Positions 50,208 to 58,493 of a stretch of DNA of 60,367 nucleotides are shown piece after piece. Numbering within the stretch: the stretch's first letter is position 1; every line of letters begins with the position of its first letter. This DNA comes from Bacteroidetes bacterium GWF2_35_48. Lineage in GTDB: Bacteria; Bacteroidota; Bacteroidia; Bacteroidales; GWF2-35-48. The stretch is taken from the NCBI GenBank assembly GCA_001769125.1, contig MEOG01000010.1:1-60367 (forward strand). The letters are read 5' to 3'. The notes below the pieces were generated by a model, which was not told where the DNA came from, did no database searches, and saw only the letters and a program-made list of their open reading frames with translations. The position numbers and the translations under genes were made by a program.

Positions 50208-50507
50208 TCAACAGCATGAAGAACCGGAATCAGAAGTGCAATCACAGGTAGGTTCTGTTCCTTTCAACATTCCCATTAATATTCCGGCAGCACATCCAAC
50301 ACCGGGCTTTACTGAAATCGCTTCCTGCGCGCAATTTTTTGCACAGGCTCCACATTCCATACAAAGATCTTTATTGAGAATAATTGCTTTTCTTTCTTCA
50401 ACAATAAAAACATTATGCGGACAGACAATCATACACATCTTACATCCGTTGCATTTTTCCACATCAAGTTTTAATGTTACAACATTTTTTAAGTAGCGAT
50501 GTTCCAT
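50208..50507 (-). CDS. hgcB: HgcB, ferredoxin of mercury methylation
   Basis: 99 aa from the ATG at 50507; a longer frame from 50588 overlaps hgcA and is not HgcB-like. Two 4Fe-4S motifs are present: C19xxC22xxC25xxxC29P (EKCNGCKMCMIVCP) and C49xxC52xxC55xxxC59 (DLCMECGACAKNC). A further conserved-type Cys72 is in VGCAAG, and the protein ends in the vicinal pair Cys98-Cys99 (SGSSCC). This layout is diagnostic of HgcB, the partner that supplies electrons to, and is thought to bring Hg(II) to, HgcA. It lies 10 bases after hgcA. An unusual CDC pair (residues 88-90) precedes the tail. Confidence 0.93.
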   Translation of the reverse strand: MEHRYLKNVVTLKLDVEKCNGCKMCMIVCPHNVFIVEERKAIILNKDLCMECGACAKNCAQEAISVKPGVGCAAGILMGMLKGTEPTCDCTSDSGSSCC

Positions 50508-50517
50508 GTTGAAAATT

Positions 50518-51546
50518 TTATATAAAACGACCAATAATCCACAATACAAGTCCAATAAAGGCAAAAATAATTTGCAGTGGTATTGCAAGCTTCATTTCTT
50601 TTAATACCCCCGACAAAGAGGTATAAGTTGATGTTCCGGTAAAATTCATTGCTATAAAAGCAGAAACTGCGGGAACAATAAAAAACCAACTAATGTTTTC
50701 AAAAAGTGAAATTCCGGGAAAAAAATAAATGAGCAAACCTGTTATAATATAAGCCAGAATTGCACCTTTCATGAAAAATTGTTTAACAGGAATATATGGC
50801 AATAACGCCGGAGCTATGGCTACGCCAGATAAAAAACCAGCGAGCAACATTACCATTGCTTTCAATCCTCCATCAAAAGCTTTATCAACAGAATAGCCAT
50901 TTGAATTGATTCCGGCAAGAATAAAAAAAACGGCAATTGCAAAAATCAGATATTGAAAATGTCCAATAATCTCAACAGGAATGAGTTTTATCCTTTCAAA
51001 AAATGGAAAAAACACTGTTCGCATTTCCCTGCTCGCGGTAAACTTATTATTAATAAAATCAGGAATATCACTTGCTTTTACCGGACCGTAAATAACATGA
51101 AAACCTGTTATTTTTTTTACATCATGCGCAGATACTCCAACAGCGCCTAATTGCGGTAAAATAATTTTTTTATGATTTACAATTTCTACAAGTTTTGTTT
51201 GCTGAATTTGTTTTATTAATTCTTCTGTACCAAAAGTTCCTTTCCCTGCTGCGCACCAAACATTAATGCCTTTTGTGTCGAGAATTAAAATCCAACTATC
51301 AATATTTTTTAGATTTTTTCTGAGATGATCAAAACTCAACTTATAGTTTGCAGTAACAAAAATATTTGAATTTTCGTTGGGTTTACCTATAGCATACAAT
51401 CCCGGATTTATTTTATAATTATTACGATTTATAGCCCAACGCGCTTTTATGGCACCAAGAATATCTCCGAAATTCAAAAAGTCAGAAATAACAGGAATAC
51501 TTACCGAGTTAAGTTGCAAACTTCCAACAATAAAATCTGTCTGCAT
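50518..51546 (-). CDS. hgcA: HgcA, corrinoid protein of mercury methylation
   Basis: 342 aa. The N-terminal corrinoid-binding domain (about 1-165) contains the cap-helix motif N95-VWCAAGK102, whose Cys98 is the lower cobalt ligand in HgcA, within GINVWCAAGKGTFGTEEL. A QLGAVGVSAHDVKK segment near 147 follows. The C-terminal half has five transmembrane helices between about residues 205 and 342. HgcA methylates Hg(II) to methylmercury at the inner membrane with a methyl-cob(III)alamin intermediate, using methyl groups from the Wood-Ljungdahl branch in studied species. Length and topology fit. It starts one base after the permease stop; third gene of a four-gene operon. Confidence 0.96.
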   Translation of the reverse strand: MQTDFIVGSLQLNSVSIPVISDFLNFGDILGAIKARWAINRNNYKINPGLYAIGKPNENSNIFVTANYKLSFDHLRKNLKNIDSWILILDTKGINVWCAAGKGTFGTEELIKQIQQTKLVEIVNHKKIILPQLGAVGVSAHDVKKITGFHVIYGPVKASDIPDFINNKFTASREMRTVFFPFFERIKLIPVEIIGHFQYLIFAIAVFFILAGINSNGYSVDKAFDGGLKAMVMLLAGFLSGVAIAPALLPYIPVKQFFMKGAILAYIITGLLIYFFPGISLFENISWFFIVPAVSAFIAMNFTGTSTYTSLSGVLKEMKLAIPLQIIFAFIGLVLWIIGRFI

Positions 51547-51547
51547 A

Positions 51548-52255
51548 TTAGAAAGTCAGTAAAAAATAAAACCCAAGAATAATCAACGCAAGACCTGCTA
51601 AATAAGACAAATATTTTCCGATTTTAGATACAGATGAAGTTAATTTTCCTACACCTACACCTACTCCAAACATGGCTACTGCAAAGGGAAGTGAATAGCC
51701 TATTCCAAAAATCATTAATAATAAAATTCCCGAAATAATATTTCCTTTAATAAATGCAGCACTCAATATTAGGGGGAAAATCGGATTACAAACAGAATTG
51801 CATCCTGTAGATAATCCTCCGATGGCAAGTCCAAAAATAAACGCTCCAAGCAAGCCTGAGCCCGTTTTAATTTTTCCAGCATTGAAAGAAGGAATTTTAA
51901 AAGGCAAAATATTTAATGTAAGCAAGCCAAAAAAAAGCAGCAATAAACCCGCTGCAATTTTCCAGTAAGATCCCATCGCATTACCAATAATATTACTGGC
52001 AAGCCCTGTTATAGCTCCAACAATTGAAAGCGAAACAATCATTCCCAAAAAGAAAAAAATACTTTTAGATAGTACTTTTTTGTTTTTATCATCAGCATTA
52101 GTATTAGCAGCTCCTGAATAACTTGCCACAGCACCGATCACTGCAAAATTGCAACAAGATGTGAATGTGCCTATCAATCCCAATAAAAAAGTGGCTATAA
52201 AAAATGTTAAAGAATACTCTCCTGAAGAGAGAATCTGATTTATCCATTCCTGCAT
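51548..52255 (-). CDS. CcdA/ArsG-like membrane permease
   Basis: 235 aa with six or seven hydrophobic helices and glycine-rich tails. It is related to the DsbD/CcdA transmembrane family. The diagnostic cysteines are unusual: Cys34-Cys35 as TSCCNFAVIG in helix 1 and Cys152/Cys156 in GCNSVCNPIFP in the fourth helix region, in place of single Cys-Pro sites. From memory this resembles ArsG, annotated as an aromatic-arsenical efflux permease, and relatives that sit with thioredoxins in Bacteroidota ars loci. It could export or import a metal(loid)-thiol or pass electrons across the membrane. Operon position between the Cys-rich protein and hgcA. Confidence 0.75.
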   Translation of the reverse strand: MQEWINQILSSGEYSLTFFIATFLLGLIGTFTSCCNFAVIGAVASYSGAANTNADDKNKKVLSKSIFFFLGMIVSLSIVGAITGLASNIIGNAMGSYWKIAAGLLLLFFGLLTLNILPFKIPSFNAGKIKTGSGLLGAFIFGLAIGGLSTGCNSVCNPIFPLILSAAFIKGNIISGILLLMIFGIGYSLPFAVAMFGVGVGVGKLTSSVSKIGKYLSYLAGLALIILGFYFLLTF

Positions 52256-52261
52256 ATTGGC

Positions 52262-52567
52262 TTATTTAGGATTTACGGTTTTAGCTTGTTCACAACAACT
52301 GCTATTTAAGTTACCGGCAGGACAGCAGGTTTTATTTTGTGTCTGATTGTTATTGTTATTGTTATAAAAAAGTTTGTACCCGATAATTCCAAGCGCAGCA
52401 GCAATAACCACTACGAATAATATTTTAGTAAACTTGCTTTTGGATTTGGGAGTACAACAATCCGAGTTGTTATTCCCGATATTATCCGACCCACAGCAAT
52501 TTGAACTGTTTTCTGTTTTTGAATCTGATTCGCAGCAGCAGGATTTTTTGTTTTCTGAATTTTCCAT
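52262..52567 (-). CDS. Cys-Cys-rich single-span membrane protein
   Basis: A 101-aa protein with no recognised family. Cysteine clusters lie on both sides of one helix: C10-C11-C12, C24-C25 and C37-C38, then Lys-rich KSKSKFTK, a helix at about 47-67, an Asn run, then C81-C82 (TCCPAG) and C91-C92 (SCCEQ). The positive patch predicts cytoplasmic N-terminus and outside C-terminus, so dithiols would face both compartments. First gene of the hgc operon, 6 bases before the permease. Vicinal cysteines bind Hg(II) and As(III) strongly; a trafficking role is inference. It could also be an ArsE-like small protein. Confidence 0.7.
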   Translation of the reverse strand: MENSENKKSCCCESDSKTENSSNCCGSDNIGNNNSDCCTPKSKSKFTKILFVVVIAAALGIIGYKLFYNNNNNNQTQNKTCCPAGNLNSSCCEQAKTVNPK

Positions 52568-52581
52568 ATTTTTATTTTTTA

Positions 52582-52681
52582 CAAAATTGAAAAATTATTA
52601 TTGCATTTACTGTTAAATGACTGTTAAAACTTATACAATTTTACAACTTTTTGCTAAAATATTTTTTTTATTGTCCGACAA
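52582..52681 (-). promoter_or_regulatory. Upstream region of the hgc operon
   Basis: The gap 52568-52746 contains a direct repeat ACTGTTAAA (52609-52617 and 52620-52628) inside the word GTTAAATGACTGTTAAAA (52612-52629), 16/18 identical to GTTAAATAATTGTTAAAA (57521-57538) ahead of arsR. A weak -7 box (CAATTTTG, 52582-52589) lies 22 bases downstream; in the ars promoter the distance is 32. A palindrome TTGTCCGACAA is at 52671-52681. Confidence 0.4.
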
Positions 52682-52746
52682 AAAAATGAAACAGGAGTTG
52701 ACTTTTTTCAGCATTTGTTTACAACAATGGATTATCAAGCATCATC

Positions 52747-54663: not shown

Positions 54664-55080
54664 TTATTTTTTTACCTTTCGCATCGGCTTTAACATGCAT
54701 GCGCATTGTCCGCTTAGTTGCGCTGCCGGGTCTTTTTTTACCGGATAGCCATCGCGTTCCCAATCCATTATTCCTCCTGCAAGATTCGCAACAACAAAAC
54801 CTGCTGATGTAAGTTTTTCTACTGCGATTTTGCTTTTCAAACCTGTCGCATCTGAAACTATTAAGGGTTTGTCTTTGGGTAAACTTTCTATGTTTTCATC
54901 CAATGTTGAAAGCGGGCAAATGATATAATTCGGCACATCAAATAATTTCATTGCAGTTAAAAAATCATCACGCAAATCAATCAGCACTGCTCCTTTTGTG
55001 ATTAACTCCATTGCTTCGCGAGCAGACAGATGTCGAATGCCTTTTATTTCAAATCCAACATCGTTGAAAAAATTTTTCAT
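54664..55080 (-). CDS. Rhodanese-like protein lacking the active-site cysteine
   Basis: 138 aa. Rhodanese fold: LSAREAMELITKGAVLIDLRDDF, then LIVSDATGLKSKIAVEKL, where the usual CxxGxRS loop has Ser-Asp in place of Cys. It is followed by ANLAGGIMDWERDGYPV. The C-terminal tail GQCACMLKP has a CxC pair. It lies 13 bases after acr3 and is the last gene of the ars operon. It may bind a thiol or metalloid through the tail; sulfurtransferase activity is unlikely. Confidence 0.8.
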   Translation of the reverse strand: MKNFFNDVGFEIKGIRHLSAREAMELITKGAVLIDLRDDFLTAMKLFDVPNYIICPLSTLDENIESLPKDKPLIVSDATGLKSKIAVEKLTSAGFVVANLAGGIMDWERDGYPVKKDPAAQLSGQCACMLKPMRKVKK

Positions 55081-55093
55081 CTTTATAAATACA

Positions 55094-56161
55094 TTATTTC
55101 ATATCAAAATATTTTCTCTTAAACATAAAAGCTACATTTACCAAAGCAATCATTACCGGTACTTCTACCAAAGGTCCTATTACTGCGGTAAATGCCTCCC
55201 CTGAATTCATTCCAAAAATTGCAATGGCAACAGCTATAGCCAATTCAAAATTATTACTGGCTGCAGTGAAAGATAATGTTACTGTTTGCCCGTAAGTTGC
55301 TCCTGCTTTTTTGCTCATAAAAAATGAACCTACAAACATTATTACAAAATAAATCAGCAATGGAATCGCAATCATTACAACATCCAAAGGAATTTTAACG
55401 ATATATTCACCTTTGAGGGAGAACATCACTATGATTGTAAAAAGCAAAGCGATGAGCGTGAATGGGCTTATTTTGGGTACAAACTTCGTGTGATACCATT
55501 CCTTTGTTTTTACACGAATCATTATAAACCGTGTGAGAAAACCTGCAATAAAAGGAATACCCAAATAGATAAATACACTTTCGACAATTTGCCAAATTGT
55601 GATTTTCTCAACAGCTGAATTCGTAGGAATACCAAACCAGCCAGGGAGAACGGCAATAAAAAAATATGCGTAAACGGAAAAGAAAAGTACCTGGAAAATA
55701 CTGTTAAAAGCAACTAAACCGGCAGCATATTGTGTATCGCCTTTTGCTAAATCATTCCACACGATAACCATAGCAATACAACGCGCAAGACCTATCATAA
55801 TGATACCATACATGTACGTAAGGTTCGTTTCGCTCGGAAATAATTTGTAGAAAATAATTGCAAGAAAAAACATTAATACAGGACCAATAATCCAGTTTTG
55901 AATCAGCGAAAGCGTTAATATTTTGTAGTTTTTAAATACATCGCTAAGTTCTTCATATTTTACTTTTGCAAGTGGAGGGTACATCATAACAATTAAGCCA
56001 ATGGCAATAGGAATGTTTGTTGTACTGTCGGGAGAAGATTTCAGAGAGTCCCAGAATTGTGCTATTACAGGGAATAAATAACCGGATATAACTCCTACAG
56101 CCATAGCGAGGAATATCCACAGGGTTAAATAACGGTCTAGAAAATTGAGTCGTTTTTTCAT
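55094..56161 (-). CDS. acr3: Acr3-type arsenite efflux transporter
   Basis: 355 aa, about ten helices. Motif [11 protein letters not shown] places conserved Cys128 in helix 4, and [10 protein letters not shown] has the conserved Glu in helix 9. N-terminus [19 protein letters not shown] and [18 protein letters not shown] near 55-72 are typical. It exports As(OH)3 using the proton motive force. The ars operon is interrupted just upstream by a four-helix-bundle gene and repeats. Confidence 0.95.
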
Positions 56162-56172
56162 TTCTTAATAAA

Positions 56173-56718
56173 TTATTATTTGAAAATTTGAAGATTTGAA
56201 GATTATTCCTTATTTTAATAAACTTTTGCATTTTGTTTTGATGTGCTAATTATTTTAGACAACATATTTATTACTGATTTTAATTTTTGCTCTAAATCTG
56301 TAGGATTAGGATAATTTTCAGATAATCTGCAAAGTTGCAACCAATATTCAGTTTCATCAGCTTCCTTCGCTGCAATTTTTAGTTTATGAATAAAGTCTGC
56401 TTTGCTTTCTGCATTTTGAGCTTCCCGGACATTTGCACCTATACTGGTTCCTGATTTTAAAATTTGTTTCGCAACAACATATTTTCTTTGATCTTCCAGC
56501 AATTCAGCATATTTAATAATTTCCAAAGCGAATTTTAACGTAAAATCAACAATCAGATTCGGTCTATCACTTCTCATATATAAACAAAAATTTATTTTTC
56601 ATATTACGTAATATATTCCATTTTATAACAACACTACATCACGACATCTTCAAATTTTCAAATTTTCAAATCTTCAAATCTTCAATCGCCGCGGCAATCA
56701 TCTTCAAATCTTCAAATC
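56173..56718. repeat. Inverted TTTGAAGATTTGAAGAT repeats flanking an inserted gene
   Basis: At 56175-56200 the plus strand reads TTTGAAAATTTGAAGATTTG and so on. At 56645-56718 the complement appears as tandem TCTTCAAAT/TTTTCAAAT units, interrupted by CGCCGCGG. The two blocks face each other around the four-helix-bundle gene (56215-56577). Confidence 0.7.
56215..56577 (-). CDS. Four-helix-bundle protein (23S rRNA IVS-type)
   Basis: 120 aa of the TIGR02436 family. Signatures: LIVDFTLKFALEIIKYAE, SGTSIGANVREAQNAESKADFIHKLKIAAKEADETEYWL split across the middle third, and a terminal helix. Homologues are encoded in 23S rRNA intervening sequences or in diversity-generating cassettes (Avd-like), but many are stand-alone. 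Here it lies between arsC and acr3 with inverted repeats on both sides and looks like an inserted cassette. Confidence 0.9.
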   Translation of the reverse strand: MRSDRPNLIVDFTLKFALEIIKYAELLEDQRKYVVAKQILKSGTSIGANVREAQNAESKADFIHKLKIAAKEADETEYWLQLCRLSENYPNPTDLEQKLKSVINMLSKIISTSKQNAKVY

Positions 56719-57123
56719 ATTTATATAAAAGGAATAAAACTTCTCTTTAATCTCATCTCTTACTCTTCGAAATTCATTCCAAATAAATTCATCAGTTCCC
56801 GTTGCTTGAGAAGGATCGTCAAAGCCAATATGCAAGCGATGCTTTACTTTCCCTGTAAATGCAGGACAAGCTTCATTTGCGCCACCACAAACTGTTATGA
56901 CATAGTCCCATTCTTCTCCTAAATATAAATCAACAGAAACAGAGGTATGATGACTTATATCAATACCTATTTCATTCATTACTTCTACTGCTTTCTCATT
57001 TAGTTTTCCAGAAGCTTCAGTACCTGCGGAACGTACTATTATATTTTCATCAAAAGATTGCAAAAAACCATGAGCCATTTGGCTGCGACAACTATTGCCT
57101 GTGCATAAAATTAAAACTTTCAT
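56704..57123 (-). CDS. arsC: Arsenate reductase (LMW phosphatase type)
   Basis: 139 aa. P-loop C7-TGNSC12-RS, then the redox cysteines Cys79 and Cys86 in TVCGGANEACP, matching the thioredoxin-coupled pI258-type ArsC (Cys10, Cys82, Cys89). RSAGTEASG near 31 and DDPSQATGT near 106 are family blocks. It reduces As(V) to As(III) for Acr3. A thioredoxin gene is nearby (58863) but membrane-anchored and probably periplasmic. Four bases separate it from arsR. Confidence 0.95.
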   Translation of the reverse strand: MKVLILCTGNSCRSQMAHGFLQSFDENIIVRSAGTEASGKLNEKAVEVMNEIGIDISHHTSVSVDLYLGEEWDYVITVCGGANEACPAFTGKVKHRLHIGFDDPSQATGTDEFIWNEFRRVRDEIKEKFYSFYINDLKI

Positions 57124-57127
57124 CTTA

Positions 57128-57460
57128 TTAACATTTACATTTGTAATCTGTTATTATTTCCGAAAACCATTTATCAAAACAGTTATTTATTTTTCTGATT
57201 TTTTTCATATCAAGACAATAATGAATTTTTAAACCATCAATTGTACCTGAGATAATACCGGCATTTTTTAAGATTTTAAGGTGTTGCGATACTGTGGTTC
57301 TTGCAATGGGCAAATCATCAGAAATATTACCTGTTTTAATTTCTTTTTTCTCTGCCAGAAGTTGAATAATCGCTATCCGTGCAGGGTGTGATAGAGCTTT
57401 TGCAATTGCTGAAAATTCTTTTTGCTGCTTGTTGAACTGTTCCGTTTTATTGTTGGTCAT
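57128..57460 (-). CDS. arsR: ArsR-type arsenic-responsive repressor
   Basis: 110 aa from the ATG at 57460. The frame opens further up to 57487, but that ATG overlaps the -7 box, so the internal start is preferred. Winged HTH with LPIARTTVSQHLKILKNAGII near residues 50-70. Cysteines Cys82, Cys94, Cys108 and Cys110; the C-terminal CKC is a likely As(III) site. First gene of the operon arsR-arsC-(insert)-acr3-rhodanese. Confidence 0.93.
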   Translation of the reverse strand: MTNNKTEQFNKQQKEFSAIAKALSHPARIAIIQLLAEKKEIKTGNISDDLPIARTTVSQHLKILKNAGIISGTIDGLKIHYCLDMKKIRKINNCFDKWFSEIITDYKCKC

Positions 57461-57480
57461 ATATTTAATGTTTAATGTCG

Positions 57481-57538
57481 CAAACATACGACAATATATT
57501 AATCAAACAAGAAATTTATCGTTAAATAATTGTTAAAA
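57481..57538 (-). promoter_or_regulatory. ars operon promoter and upstream motif
   Basis: On the minus strand TTG (57508-57510), 19 bases, TATGTTTG (57481-57488) is a textbook Bacteroidota promoter, start near 57475. Further upstream, GTTAAATAATTGTTAAAA (57521-57538) is 16/18 identical to a word ahead of the hgc operon (52612-52629). Confidence 0.65.
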
Positions 57539-57542
57539 GTTT

Positions 57543-58493
57543 TTAAATTTCTGTTTTACAAGTGAAAATCATTTTACTTACACCCAATTGAAACGAAAAT
57601 TTATTAGTAAGCTGATAACCGTTGATATATTTATACACCGGAATATCTGCGAGAAAAATAATATTCCAAGTTGACTTTAAGGTGTAAATTATTTGAGGAT
57701 TAAAATAAACAACCCTGCTCCCTGAGGATTCTACTTTAATTCCTGATTCACGAGTGTCCAAGCCTCTCCATTCAAACTTTAAATTACCAATAAGCAATAA
57801 GTTTTCGATTAATTTATAATTCCCGGCTAAAGAATATTGAAAATAATTTCCATACTTATAAATCAAAAAACCTGTATTTATTAAATTGCTTATTTCAAAC
57901 AGGGAAAAAGTCTGCCACCCCCACTTCCTGTCGGATCGCATTCTTGAATAAAACAGAGCGGCATTAAATTTTAAAGCGCCGGATGAAGGTTGTAAGGAAA
58001 CAGGAATCGTAATGCCGTTTATTTCTTCACTAAAATTCCCTACAGGGATTTTTGTACCAAGAGACGCAACAAGAGAGGTAATCGGTTTAACGGTTTTATA
58101 TAATGTGTAACGGGCTTGTATTCCCAAGTCTCCAAAACCACGTGACCGGATCATTGTATTTTCATTCGTTAAATTTAATTCCTGCGATTTATCAATAAAA
58201 TAGCCCATTTCGGCATGTAACGCAAATTTAGGGAACAAACCATAAGTTAACGAAGTATTGATAAAATCATAATAACTTTTATCAATAAAAGGAATATCCT
58301 GTTTCTTTTCTAAATGATAATAATCGGAAGAAGAGCTGTGTTTGTAGAAAGCAGAAATTTTGAAATCTTTTTTGTCCATTTCTTCAATTGTACCCTCACC
58401 ACTTACCGGATTACCAGCCGAACAGCATTGACTATATGCATTGCTTGAAAAAAGCAAATAAAAATGCAGTAGTATAAAGATGATCGTTTTCAT
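57543..58493 (-). CDS. Outer-membrane barrel protein with Cys-Cys mature N-terminus
   Basis: 316 aa. Signal peptide ends at NAYSQ, and the mature protein starts CCSAGNPVSGEGT. The body has alternating strands of a transporter-like barrel (GLFPKFALHAEMGYF, FGDLGIQARYTLY, GKFSFQ-type end strands) and ends KMIFTCKTEI. It resembles the phenol-degradation (MetA-pathway) type porin family annotated as putative OM proteins. The N-terminal dithiol could take a metal(loid). Its start overlaps the lipoprotein gene by four bases. Confidence 0.7.
   Translation of the reverse strand: MKTIIFILLHFYLLFSSNAYSQCCSAGNPVSGEGTIEEMDKKDFKISAFYKHSSSSDYYHLEKKQDIPFIDKSYYDFINTSLTYGLFPKFALHAEMGYFIDKSQELNLTNENTMIRSRGFGDLGIQARYTLYKTVKPITSLVASLGTKIPVGNFSEEINGITIPVSLQPSSGALKFNAALFYSRMRSDRKWGWQTFSLFEISNLINTGFLIYKYGNYFQYSLAGNYKLIENLLLIGNLKFEWRGLDTRESGIKVESSGSRVVYFNPQIIYTLKSTWNIIFLADIPVYKYINGYQLTNKFSFQLGVSKMIFTCKTEI

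What the first reader, a model, noticed from the sequence alone, without database searches (positions are those of the whole stretch)
50208..52567. Four-gene hgc operon with a Cys-Cys membrane protein and an ArsG/CcdA-like permease
Gene gaps are 6, 1 and 10 bases, so the Cys-rich protein, permease, hgcA and hgcB are almost certainly one transcript. The small protein has dithiols on both sides of one helix, the permease has TSCC and GCNSVC sites, and HgcB ends in CC. A chain of vicinal thiols from outside to HgcA could deliver Hg(II), or protect the cell. I know of no description of this four-part set.
Basis: partly seen in the sequence, partly recalled or inferred. Interest (0 to 1): 0.9.

Follow-up and report, generated by a model that had tools for sequence, protein, structure and literature searches.

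The report
Mercury-methylation operon with thiol permease
The genes that make methylmercury sit here in one operon with a cysteine-paired membrane permease and a small cysteine-rich membrane protein, and the same set recurs in other bacteria, so this pair is a concrete candidate for moving mercury or methylmercury across the membrane.

Summary
The four genes lie at 50208-52567 (-) with gaps of 6, 1 and 10 bases; hgcA and hgcB pass NCBIfam cut-offs. Of 393 genomes of the window's order, 23 have HgcA over cut-off; 14 of these carry the permease subfamily upstream of hgcA on the same strand (12 directly adjacent), against 2 of 370 without HgcA. All 13 whose contig extends far enough also have the Cys-rich protein (one frame-broken). 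Two further genomes of the phylum repeat the set; two Chloroflexi MAGs repeat the permease-hgcAB link with a different small partner. The permease is related to CcdA and the organoarsenical exporter ArsG, but with the Cys of two broken helices doubled.

The Hg(II)-delivery reading is only partly supported. The pair also occurs without hgcAB: in three ars operons (two with arsM) and once as a shortened stray copy. This favours outward handling of a methylated or soft metal(loid) over a dedicated importer; direction and substrate are unmeasured. hgcAB beside ars genes is published; my searches found no paper on this pair. Best reading: thiol hand-off and efflux, in hgc operons probably of CH3Hg+ (0.42).

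The parts
52262..52567 (-). CysTM: 101-aa protein, Cys-rich head (CxC...CC, then Lys) - one TM helix - Cys-rich tail
   Evidence: relatives in 17 of 18 permease-positive genomes
51548..52255 (-). PERM: 235-aa DsbD_2-family permease; Cys pairs C34-C35 and C152/C156 beside the breaks of two broken helices
50518..51546 (-). hgcA, corrinoid methyltransferase (NVWCAAGK)
50208..50507 (-). hgcB, dicluster ferredoxin with tail CDC...CC
52568..52746 (-). 179-base gap upstream of CysTM; probable promoter region (inferred; promoter-like sites no more than in shuffles)
54664..55080 (-). rhodanese-like protein in the nearby ars cluster; homologues near hgcA in 5 other loci
55094..56161 (-). acr3 arsenite efflux transporter (TIGR00832, 434 bits, cut-off 282.8)
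56704..57123 (-). arsC-like arsenate reductase (TIGR02691 141.1 bits, below cut-off 174.3)
57128..57487 (-). ArsR/SmtB-family regulator (NF033788, 69.6 bits, cut-off 55)

Best explanation
CysTM and PERM form an inner-membrane thiol hand-off and efflux module of the ars type, recruited to hgcAB. SHOWN: the pair is a conserved unit; PERM is linked to hgcAB in the window's order, in another class of the phylum and in two Chloroflexi MAGs; PERM is homologous to CcdA and ArsG but has paired Cys at both key sites; CysTM has a CxC...CC head and a Cys-rich tail on opposite sides of one hydrophobic stretch; of the copies without hgcAB, two are in arsM operons. INFERRED: the Lys-flanked head of CysTM faces the cytosol; its CxC...CC motif, like the tail of HgcB, takes thiol-bound CH3Hg+ (or Hg2+) from HgcB; PERM passes it between its two Cys pairs; the outer CysTM tail releases it. 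In arsM operons the same pair would handle As(III) or methylarsenite. So methylation plus export would be one detoxification line, parallel to ArsM plus an arsenical permease.
For: Association: 14 of 23 HgcA-positive genomes have PERM versus 2 of 370 HgcA-negative ones (Fisher p 5e-18). The profile was built mostly from HgcA-linked rows, so the cleaner signs are the gap in scores (135-334 bits, then 60.5) and G1115, an untrained hit with the same operon. In the class of G172, 1 of 323 genomes has PERM (324 bits; 24 others match at 75-88 bits and show no Cys pairs at both sites), and that one is HgcA-positive. PERM and HgcA distances correlate (r 0.71, 14 loci). Three loci lacking PERM nest among loci with it (98/97), and L039 keeps a decayed CysTM without PERM: losses from an older set. 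Efflux side: G546 has arsR - DUF1573 gene - arsC::arsM - CysTM - PERM - acr3, hgcAB missing, while its nearest PERM relative G590 (100/100) has arsR-arsC-CysTM-PERM-hgcA-hgcB-acr3; G487 has arsR-arsM-CysTM-PERM. ArsG, a homologue, is reported as an efflux transporter for organic arsenicals (PMC9144182, passages). Of 24 hgcA loci fetched, 19 have an ars-type gene in the stretch, 15 if ArsR alone is not counted. In 2 Chloroflexi MAGs HgcB is fused to the arsenic chaperone ArsD. PMC7305189 (passages) proposes that the HgcB Cys tail carries Hg2+ or CH3Hg+ and that an outside thiolate, possibly a protein Cys, releases CH3Hg+ from HgcB.
Against: No transport, metal-binding or expression data. 9 of 23 HgcA-positive genomes of the order lack PERM, so methylation does not seem to need it. 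The HgcB tail motif is present with or without PERM, so it is no evidence of contact with CysTM. arsM lies in the stretch in only 1 of 16 PERM-hgcA loci of the phylum; without hgcAB it is 2 of 3 copies there, small numbers. L099 (second, shortened copy in G586) and L008 have neither hgcA nor arsM nearby. ArsFG homologues stand near PERM in 3 of the hgcA loci, so an organoarsenical exporter may already be present. Distance correlation may reflect shared species history. mer operons show that an importer can belong to a detoxification operon (recalled), so context alone does not fix direction.
Confidence: 0.42

Rival explanations
1. Hg(II) importer: CysTM tail picks up Hg(II) outside, PERM carries it in, and the head passes it to the HgcB tail and HgcA, as MerP/MerT do for MerA (mer part recalled).
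For: Order and tight spacing with hgcAB; Cys pairs along the whole path; HgcB Cys tail suggested to carry Hg2+ (PMC7305189, passages). Hg(II) uptake by methylators is reported as energy-dependent (PMC7438021, citing another paper).
Against: The pair persists in G546 and G487, which have no HgcA, in arsenic operons, where an importer has no evident use; no MerT match in Pfam at E<=0.1; 9 of 23 HgcA-positive genomes lack it.
Confidence: 0.2
2. Reductant relay: PERM is a CcdA/DsbD-like electron carrier that keeps dithiols of CysTM, ArsC or HgcB reduced.
For: PERM profile matches CcdA 5vkv (E 2e-7; Foldseek probability 1.00 but E 0.013); a Cys of each PERM pair lines up with or near the ArsG Cys; CcdA plus thioredoxin in ars operons was proposed to serve As(V) reduction (PMC2963123, passages). 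Two of 13 CysTM rows (L048, L050) do hold a CXXC after the helix.
Against: 21 of 21 PERM rows have two or more Cys at both sites and lack the Pro-Cys / Cys-Pro form of ArsG. The window CysTM and 10 other rows have no CXXC, nor has the thioredoxin-like extension (my label) of L005, L007 and L008; that extension matched no domain and its model was poor.
Confidence: 0.15
3. Arsenic-only component: the pair serves As(III)/methylarsenite export and hgcAB merely joined a shared ars operon.
For: ars-type neighbours in 19 of 24 hgcA loci; pair or permease without hgcAB in ars operons.
Against: Only 2 of 370 HgcA-negative genomes of the order have PERM, though how many of them have ars operons was not counted; PERM lies directly upstream of hgcA in 12 of 14, and L042 and L054 show no ars gene in the stretch fetched.
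Confidence: 0.18

Closest known systems
ArsF/ArsG (organoarsenical efflux set of ars operons; NCBIfam NF040494, NF040495)
   Same: DsbD_2-type permease homologous over its length (hhalign probability 96.6%), small thiol partner upstream, ars operon. ArsG over cut-off also stands near hgcAB in 6 of 24 loci.
   Different: PERM does not match the ArsG model; single Pro-Cys / Cys-Pro sites replaced by Cys pairs; CysTM matches no ArsF model; 3 of those 6 loci also hold PERM, so ArsFG is not simply its substitute.
CcdA / DsbD transmembrane electron carriers
   Same: The only solved structure with a nearly full-length sequence match (5vkv, E 2e-7); a Cys beside the break of each of two helices.
   Different: Cys pairs instead of single Cys; most partners lack CXXC.
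hgcAB loci with ars genes (PMC7438021 and PMC10349881, passages)
   Same: hgcAB flanked by acr3, arsC, arsM, arsR.
   Different: The passages I read do not mention the CysTM-permease pair; figures were not seen.
MerT/MerP/MerC mercury uptake (recalled)
   Same: Cys pairs in and beside the membrane.
   Different: Different Pfam family; the pair occurs without hgcAB in ars operons.

Membership tests
HgcA | NCBIfam NF040863 over cut-off; cap-helix motif NVWCA[A/S]GK (motif recalled) | tested here: met
   433.7 bits, cut-off 275; NVWCAAGK
HgcB | NF040864 over cut-off, terminal Cys pair | tested here: met
   123.1 bits, cut-off 99; ends SSCC
HgcAB methylation activity | forms CH3Hg+ | not testable with these tools
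   needs culture
ArsG permease | NF040495 over cut-off | tested here: not met
   no match at E<=0.1, while 8 paralogues in related loci score 240-316 bits, cut-off 200
ArsG permease | homology of the whole chain | tested here: met
   hhalign 96.6%, 213 columns; BLASTP E 8e-4 for the pair
CcdA/DsbD electron carrier | DsbD_2 domain / CcdA homology | tested here: met
   Pfam 41.2 bits, cut-off 24.9; CcdA E 2e-7
CcdA/DsbD electron carrier | one Cys with Pro at each of two sites (taken from the ArsG/CcdA-like rows) | tested here: not met
   21 of 21 PERM rows have Cys pairs at both; ArsG rows have invariant P29-C30 and C150-P151
CcdA/DsbD electron carrier | transmembrane electron transfer | not testable with these tools
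   needs biochemistry
MerT/MerC mercury transporter | Pfam MerT/MerC match | tested here: not met
   only DsbD_2, and DUF2637 below cut-off, at E<=0.1
ars operon component | same-strand ars neighbours | tested here: met
   19 of 24 hgcA loci have an ars-type gene (15 without counting ArsR alone), also L008, L097, L098; in the window itself the ars genes begin about 2.1 kb upstream, beyond a + strand gene

The most novel reading that the evidence does not exclude
The pair is a dedicated membrane conduit for the mercury methylation enzyme: HgcAB, CysTM and PERM form one complex in which CH3Hg+ (or Hg2+) passes along mirrored CxC...CC thiols (HgcB tail, CysTM head) and through the paired Cys of a DsbD-type permease. 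It would be a first gene-level candidate for the transport step of biological mercury methylation, and would link mercury and arsenic methylation as interchangeable inputs to one exporter.
Probability: 0.33. Interest if true: 0.87.

Novelty: new variant of a known kind. Interest (0 to 1): 0.63.

Why it matters
How Hg(II) enters and CH3Hg+ leaves methylating cells, and what hgcAB are for, are open questions (recalled; PMC10349881, passages, says the native role still needs evidence). A conserved, removable two-gene partner gives both a direct genetic test. The arsenic context, and hgcAB missing from an otherwise matching operon that has arsM instead, point to a detoxification role. If export is right, CysTM and the permease could mark released rather than retained methylmercury.

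Tried and rejected
Rejected: chance adjacency; PERM as a member of NCBIfam ArsG; PERM as MerT. Not useful: the AlphaFold model of the thioredoxin-like relative (mean pLDDT 44.4) was not searched; VIA-align gave CcdA Z 4.6 (175 aligned, rmsd 4.8) below generic helical matches, the best being Nramp 6d9w at Z 8.5; the PERM model is middling (pLDDT 69.7, pTM 0.64); a PDB search with the thioredoxin-like alignment gave only E 0.22; promoter-like sites no more than in shuffles (18, mean 19.0), terminator-like sites 5 against 1.9, one inside PERM. 'arsM or hgcA always beside PERM' was tested and fails for L008 and L099. 'ArsFG replaces PERM' was tested and is weak: 3 of 6 loci with ArsG also hold PERM. 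CysTM as a relative of the N-half of the L005 protein: 17.9 bits in a three-protein search, suggestive only.

Rows dropped before counts: G602, G720, G776 and G612 (HgcA matches under cut-off) are not among the 23. In the tree, L058 (hgcA at a contig edge) is unlabelled, and L056 and L057 (partial hgcA) are left out. L038 and L054 are left out of the CysTM alignment. The 34 control genomes were taken from the top of lists, not at random, and include those four with sub-cut-off HgcA matches. In the PERM tree the label 'hgc' on L005 is a default of my script: its contig ends before any hgcA could be seen, and its genome gave only a divergent HgcA elsewhere. Of 25 further paralogues, two have a second Cys at one site (L122, L126), none at both as far as the matched pieces go.
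Full report
WHAT IS THERE. On the - strand, 52567 down to 50208, four genes follow each other with gaps of 6, 1 and 10 bases: a 101-aa Cys-rich single-helix protein (here CysTM), a 235-aa permease (PERM), hgcA and hgcB. HgcA and HgcB pass their NCBIfam cut-offs (433.7 against 275 bits; 123.1 against 99). HgcA and PERM each gave one match in the genome. Upstream, beyond an AsnC/Lrp-type regulator and a + strand gene, lies an ars cluster on the - strand: rhodanese-like, acr3, arsC-like, ArsR.

RECURRENCE. HgcA over cut-off was found in 23 of 393 genomes drawn from the order. A profile of the permease (18 rows) run on 393 genomes drawn the same way gave 17 matches in 16 genomes at 135-334 bits and then nothing above 60.5 bits. 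Fourteen of the 16 are HgcA-positive. In all 14 the permease is upstream of hgcA on the same strand, directly adjacent in 12; in G652 one ORF and in G632 three ORFs of my simple caller lie between. CysTM precedes PERM in all 13 where the contig extends far enough (G442 is cut); in G586 it is split over two frames. Because 13 of these rows built the profile, the 14 of 16 is partly by construction. More independent points: only 2 of 370 HgcA-negative genomes match; a later draw of 333 genomes (12 with PERM, 11 of them known already) added G1115, not used in the profile, with arsR-arsC-CysTM-PERM-hgcA-hgcB-(23S rRNA intervening-sequence-type protein)-acr3; in the class of a remote relative, G172, PERM occurs in 1 of 323 genomes (24 others match only at 75-88 bits), and that genome has arsM-CysTM-PERM-hgcA-hgcB, although G172's row is itself in the profile. 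A scan of a collection of 84,980 species' contigs with the window permease alone, not chosen by hgcA, reached four loci (it finds close relatives only): two Chloroflexi MAGs with PERM-(CARDB protein)-hgcA-hgcB, one Dehalococcoidia MAG with the permease in an ars operon without hgcAB, one MAG whose contig ends. In these four the small protein upstream of PERM is a longer, thioredoxin-like one (my label), with a Cys-rich end, partly cut in L006.

THE SMALL PROTEIN. In 61 genomes that I named (18 PERM-positive, 9 HgcA-positive without PERM, 34 others), CysTM scores 30 bits or more in 17 of 18, 1 of 9 and 0 of 34 (most PERM-positive rows trained the profile). The single exception, G736, holds a decayed CysTM between arsR and hgcA, with no PERM. 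All 13 aligned rows share CxC, then CC, before one hydrophobic stretch, and a Cys-containing tail. The Lys/Arg-rich flank suggests the head faces the cytosol (inference). Of 22 HgcB tails read, 19 hold CxC...CC and one CxC...C, with or without PERM.

THE PERMEASE. It belongs to DsbD_2. Its profile finds CcdA among solved structures (E 2e-7; the next matches are ribonuclease kappa chains at E 0.0017 or worse over 61 residues); the model's one Foldseek match with probability 1.00 is the same CcdA, at E 0.013. It is homologous to ArsG (hhalign 96.6%) but is not ArsG by NCBIfam. In 21 of 21 permease rows there are two or more Cys at each of the two key sites (CC, CxC or CxxC in the first; CC or CxxxC in the second). 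Of 21 ArsG/CcdA-like paralogues from the same genomes and loci, 20 have one Cys at the first site (L008's has a second four residues away) and none shows more than one at the second (the second site aligns with a slip, but C150-P151 is invariant in eight ArsG rows). Of 25 more distant paralogues, two have a second Cys at one site and none at both (two were seen only in part). In the model the Cys pairs lie beside the breaks between helices 16-29/35-50 and 135-156/159-168. Paired thiols at both half-sites fit soft-metal passage better than a simple disulfide relay; this is inference.

WITHOUT HGCAB. G546: arsR, a DUF1573 gene, an arsC::arsM fusion, CysTM, PERM, then acr3 34 bases on. Its permease is sister to that of G590 (100/100), whose operon is arsR-arsC-CysTM-PERM-hgcA-hgcB-acr3. 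G487: arsR-arsM-CysTM-PERM. In a search at E<=10, G487 gave no HgcA match and G546 only a 10.3-bit one with stops (G546 is 78% complete). G586 has a second, shortened CysTM-PERM beside histidine-kinase-like genes (label by eye), away from hgcA and arsM. L008 has arsC-acr3-arsR-thioredoxin-like-PERM-CARDB-arsD-arsA. So the pair's more lasting company is the ars operon, and hgcAB or arsM come and go beside it. That favours outward handling of soft or methylated metal(loid), and weighs against a dedicated Hg(II) importer, though mer operons (recalled) warn that an importer can sit in a detoxification operon.

TREES. HgcA loci without PERM (L037, L039, L047) fall inside a supported set with it (98/97), so loss explains part of the absences; L052, L053 and L055 lie elsewhere. 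The fewest changes on 23 labelled rows is 5. PERM and HgcA distances correlate (r 0.71 over 14 loci; CysTM with HgcA r 0.44 over 13); common descent of the genomes could produce this too.

LITERATURE. hgcAB beside acr3, arsC, arsM and arsR: PMC7438021 (passages) and PMC10349881 (passages). HgcB tail as carrier of Hg2+/CH3Hg+, and an outside thiolate, possibly a protein Cys, to release CH3Hg+: PMC7305189 (passages). CcdA and thioredoxin as ars operon genes: PMC2963123 (passages). ArsG as efflux transporter: PMC9144182 (passages). Searches for hgcA with 'cytochrome c biogenesis' gave 0 papers; others listed none whose title or abstract start describes the pair, but some lists were capped, figures and supplements were not read, and most subscription journals are not held.

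VERDICT. The gene set is real and conserved, and I found no description of it; its ties to hgcAB and to ars operons are both strong. Direction, substrate and physical contact with HgcAB are unproven. I hold thiol hand-off and efflux as the best single reading (0.42).

Noticed in passing
L006:2773-3402, L007:8535-9371: HgcB fused in frame to the arsenic metallochaperone ArsD in two Chloroflexi MAGs (L007: NF040864 99.3 bits, NF033727 100.3 bits; L006 by phmmer). The third HgcA-positive genome of that order (L119) has an HgcB ORF of 101 aa without ArsD.
   Followed up: partly
L100:4603-6214: Divergent HgcA (166 bits, cut-off 275) with NVWCSSGKGK, followed by an HgcB-like ferredoxin with tail CGC...GCC and an ArsR-family gene, in a candidate FCPU426 MAG that also has the permease on another contig.
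   Followed up: partly
L097:1984-3216: In-frame fusion of an ArsC-type reductase with an ArsM methyltransferase (NF008823 325.6 bits, cut-off 263), directly upstream of CysTM-PERM.
   Followed up: partly
window 54664-55080; L037, L041, L045, L047, L050: A rhodanese-like gene recurs in 6 of 24 hgcA loci, in L041 between arsR and CysTM.
   Followed up: no
window 56215-56577; L149:11252-11611: A 23S rRNA intervening-sequence-type protein (Pfam PF05635) sits inside the ars cluster here and between hgcB and acr3 in L149.
   Followed up: partly
window 57543-58493; L045:11847-12815: An outer-membrane-type protein (Pfam Phenol_MetA_deg) with an N-terminal CC, upstream of arsR, has a homologue in the same place in L045 (E 2e-47).
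   Followed up: no
L007:6748-7485, L008:6732-7490: CARDB-domain protein with a Cys-rich C-terminus between PERM and hgcA or arsD in Chloroflexi, a possible extra thiol carrier outside the membrane.
   Followed up: no
window 51955-51937 (-): Terminator-like hairpin with a T run inside the permease gene.
   Followed up: no
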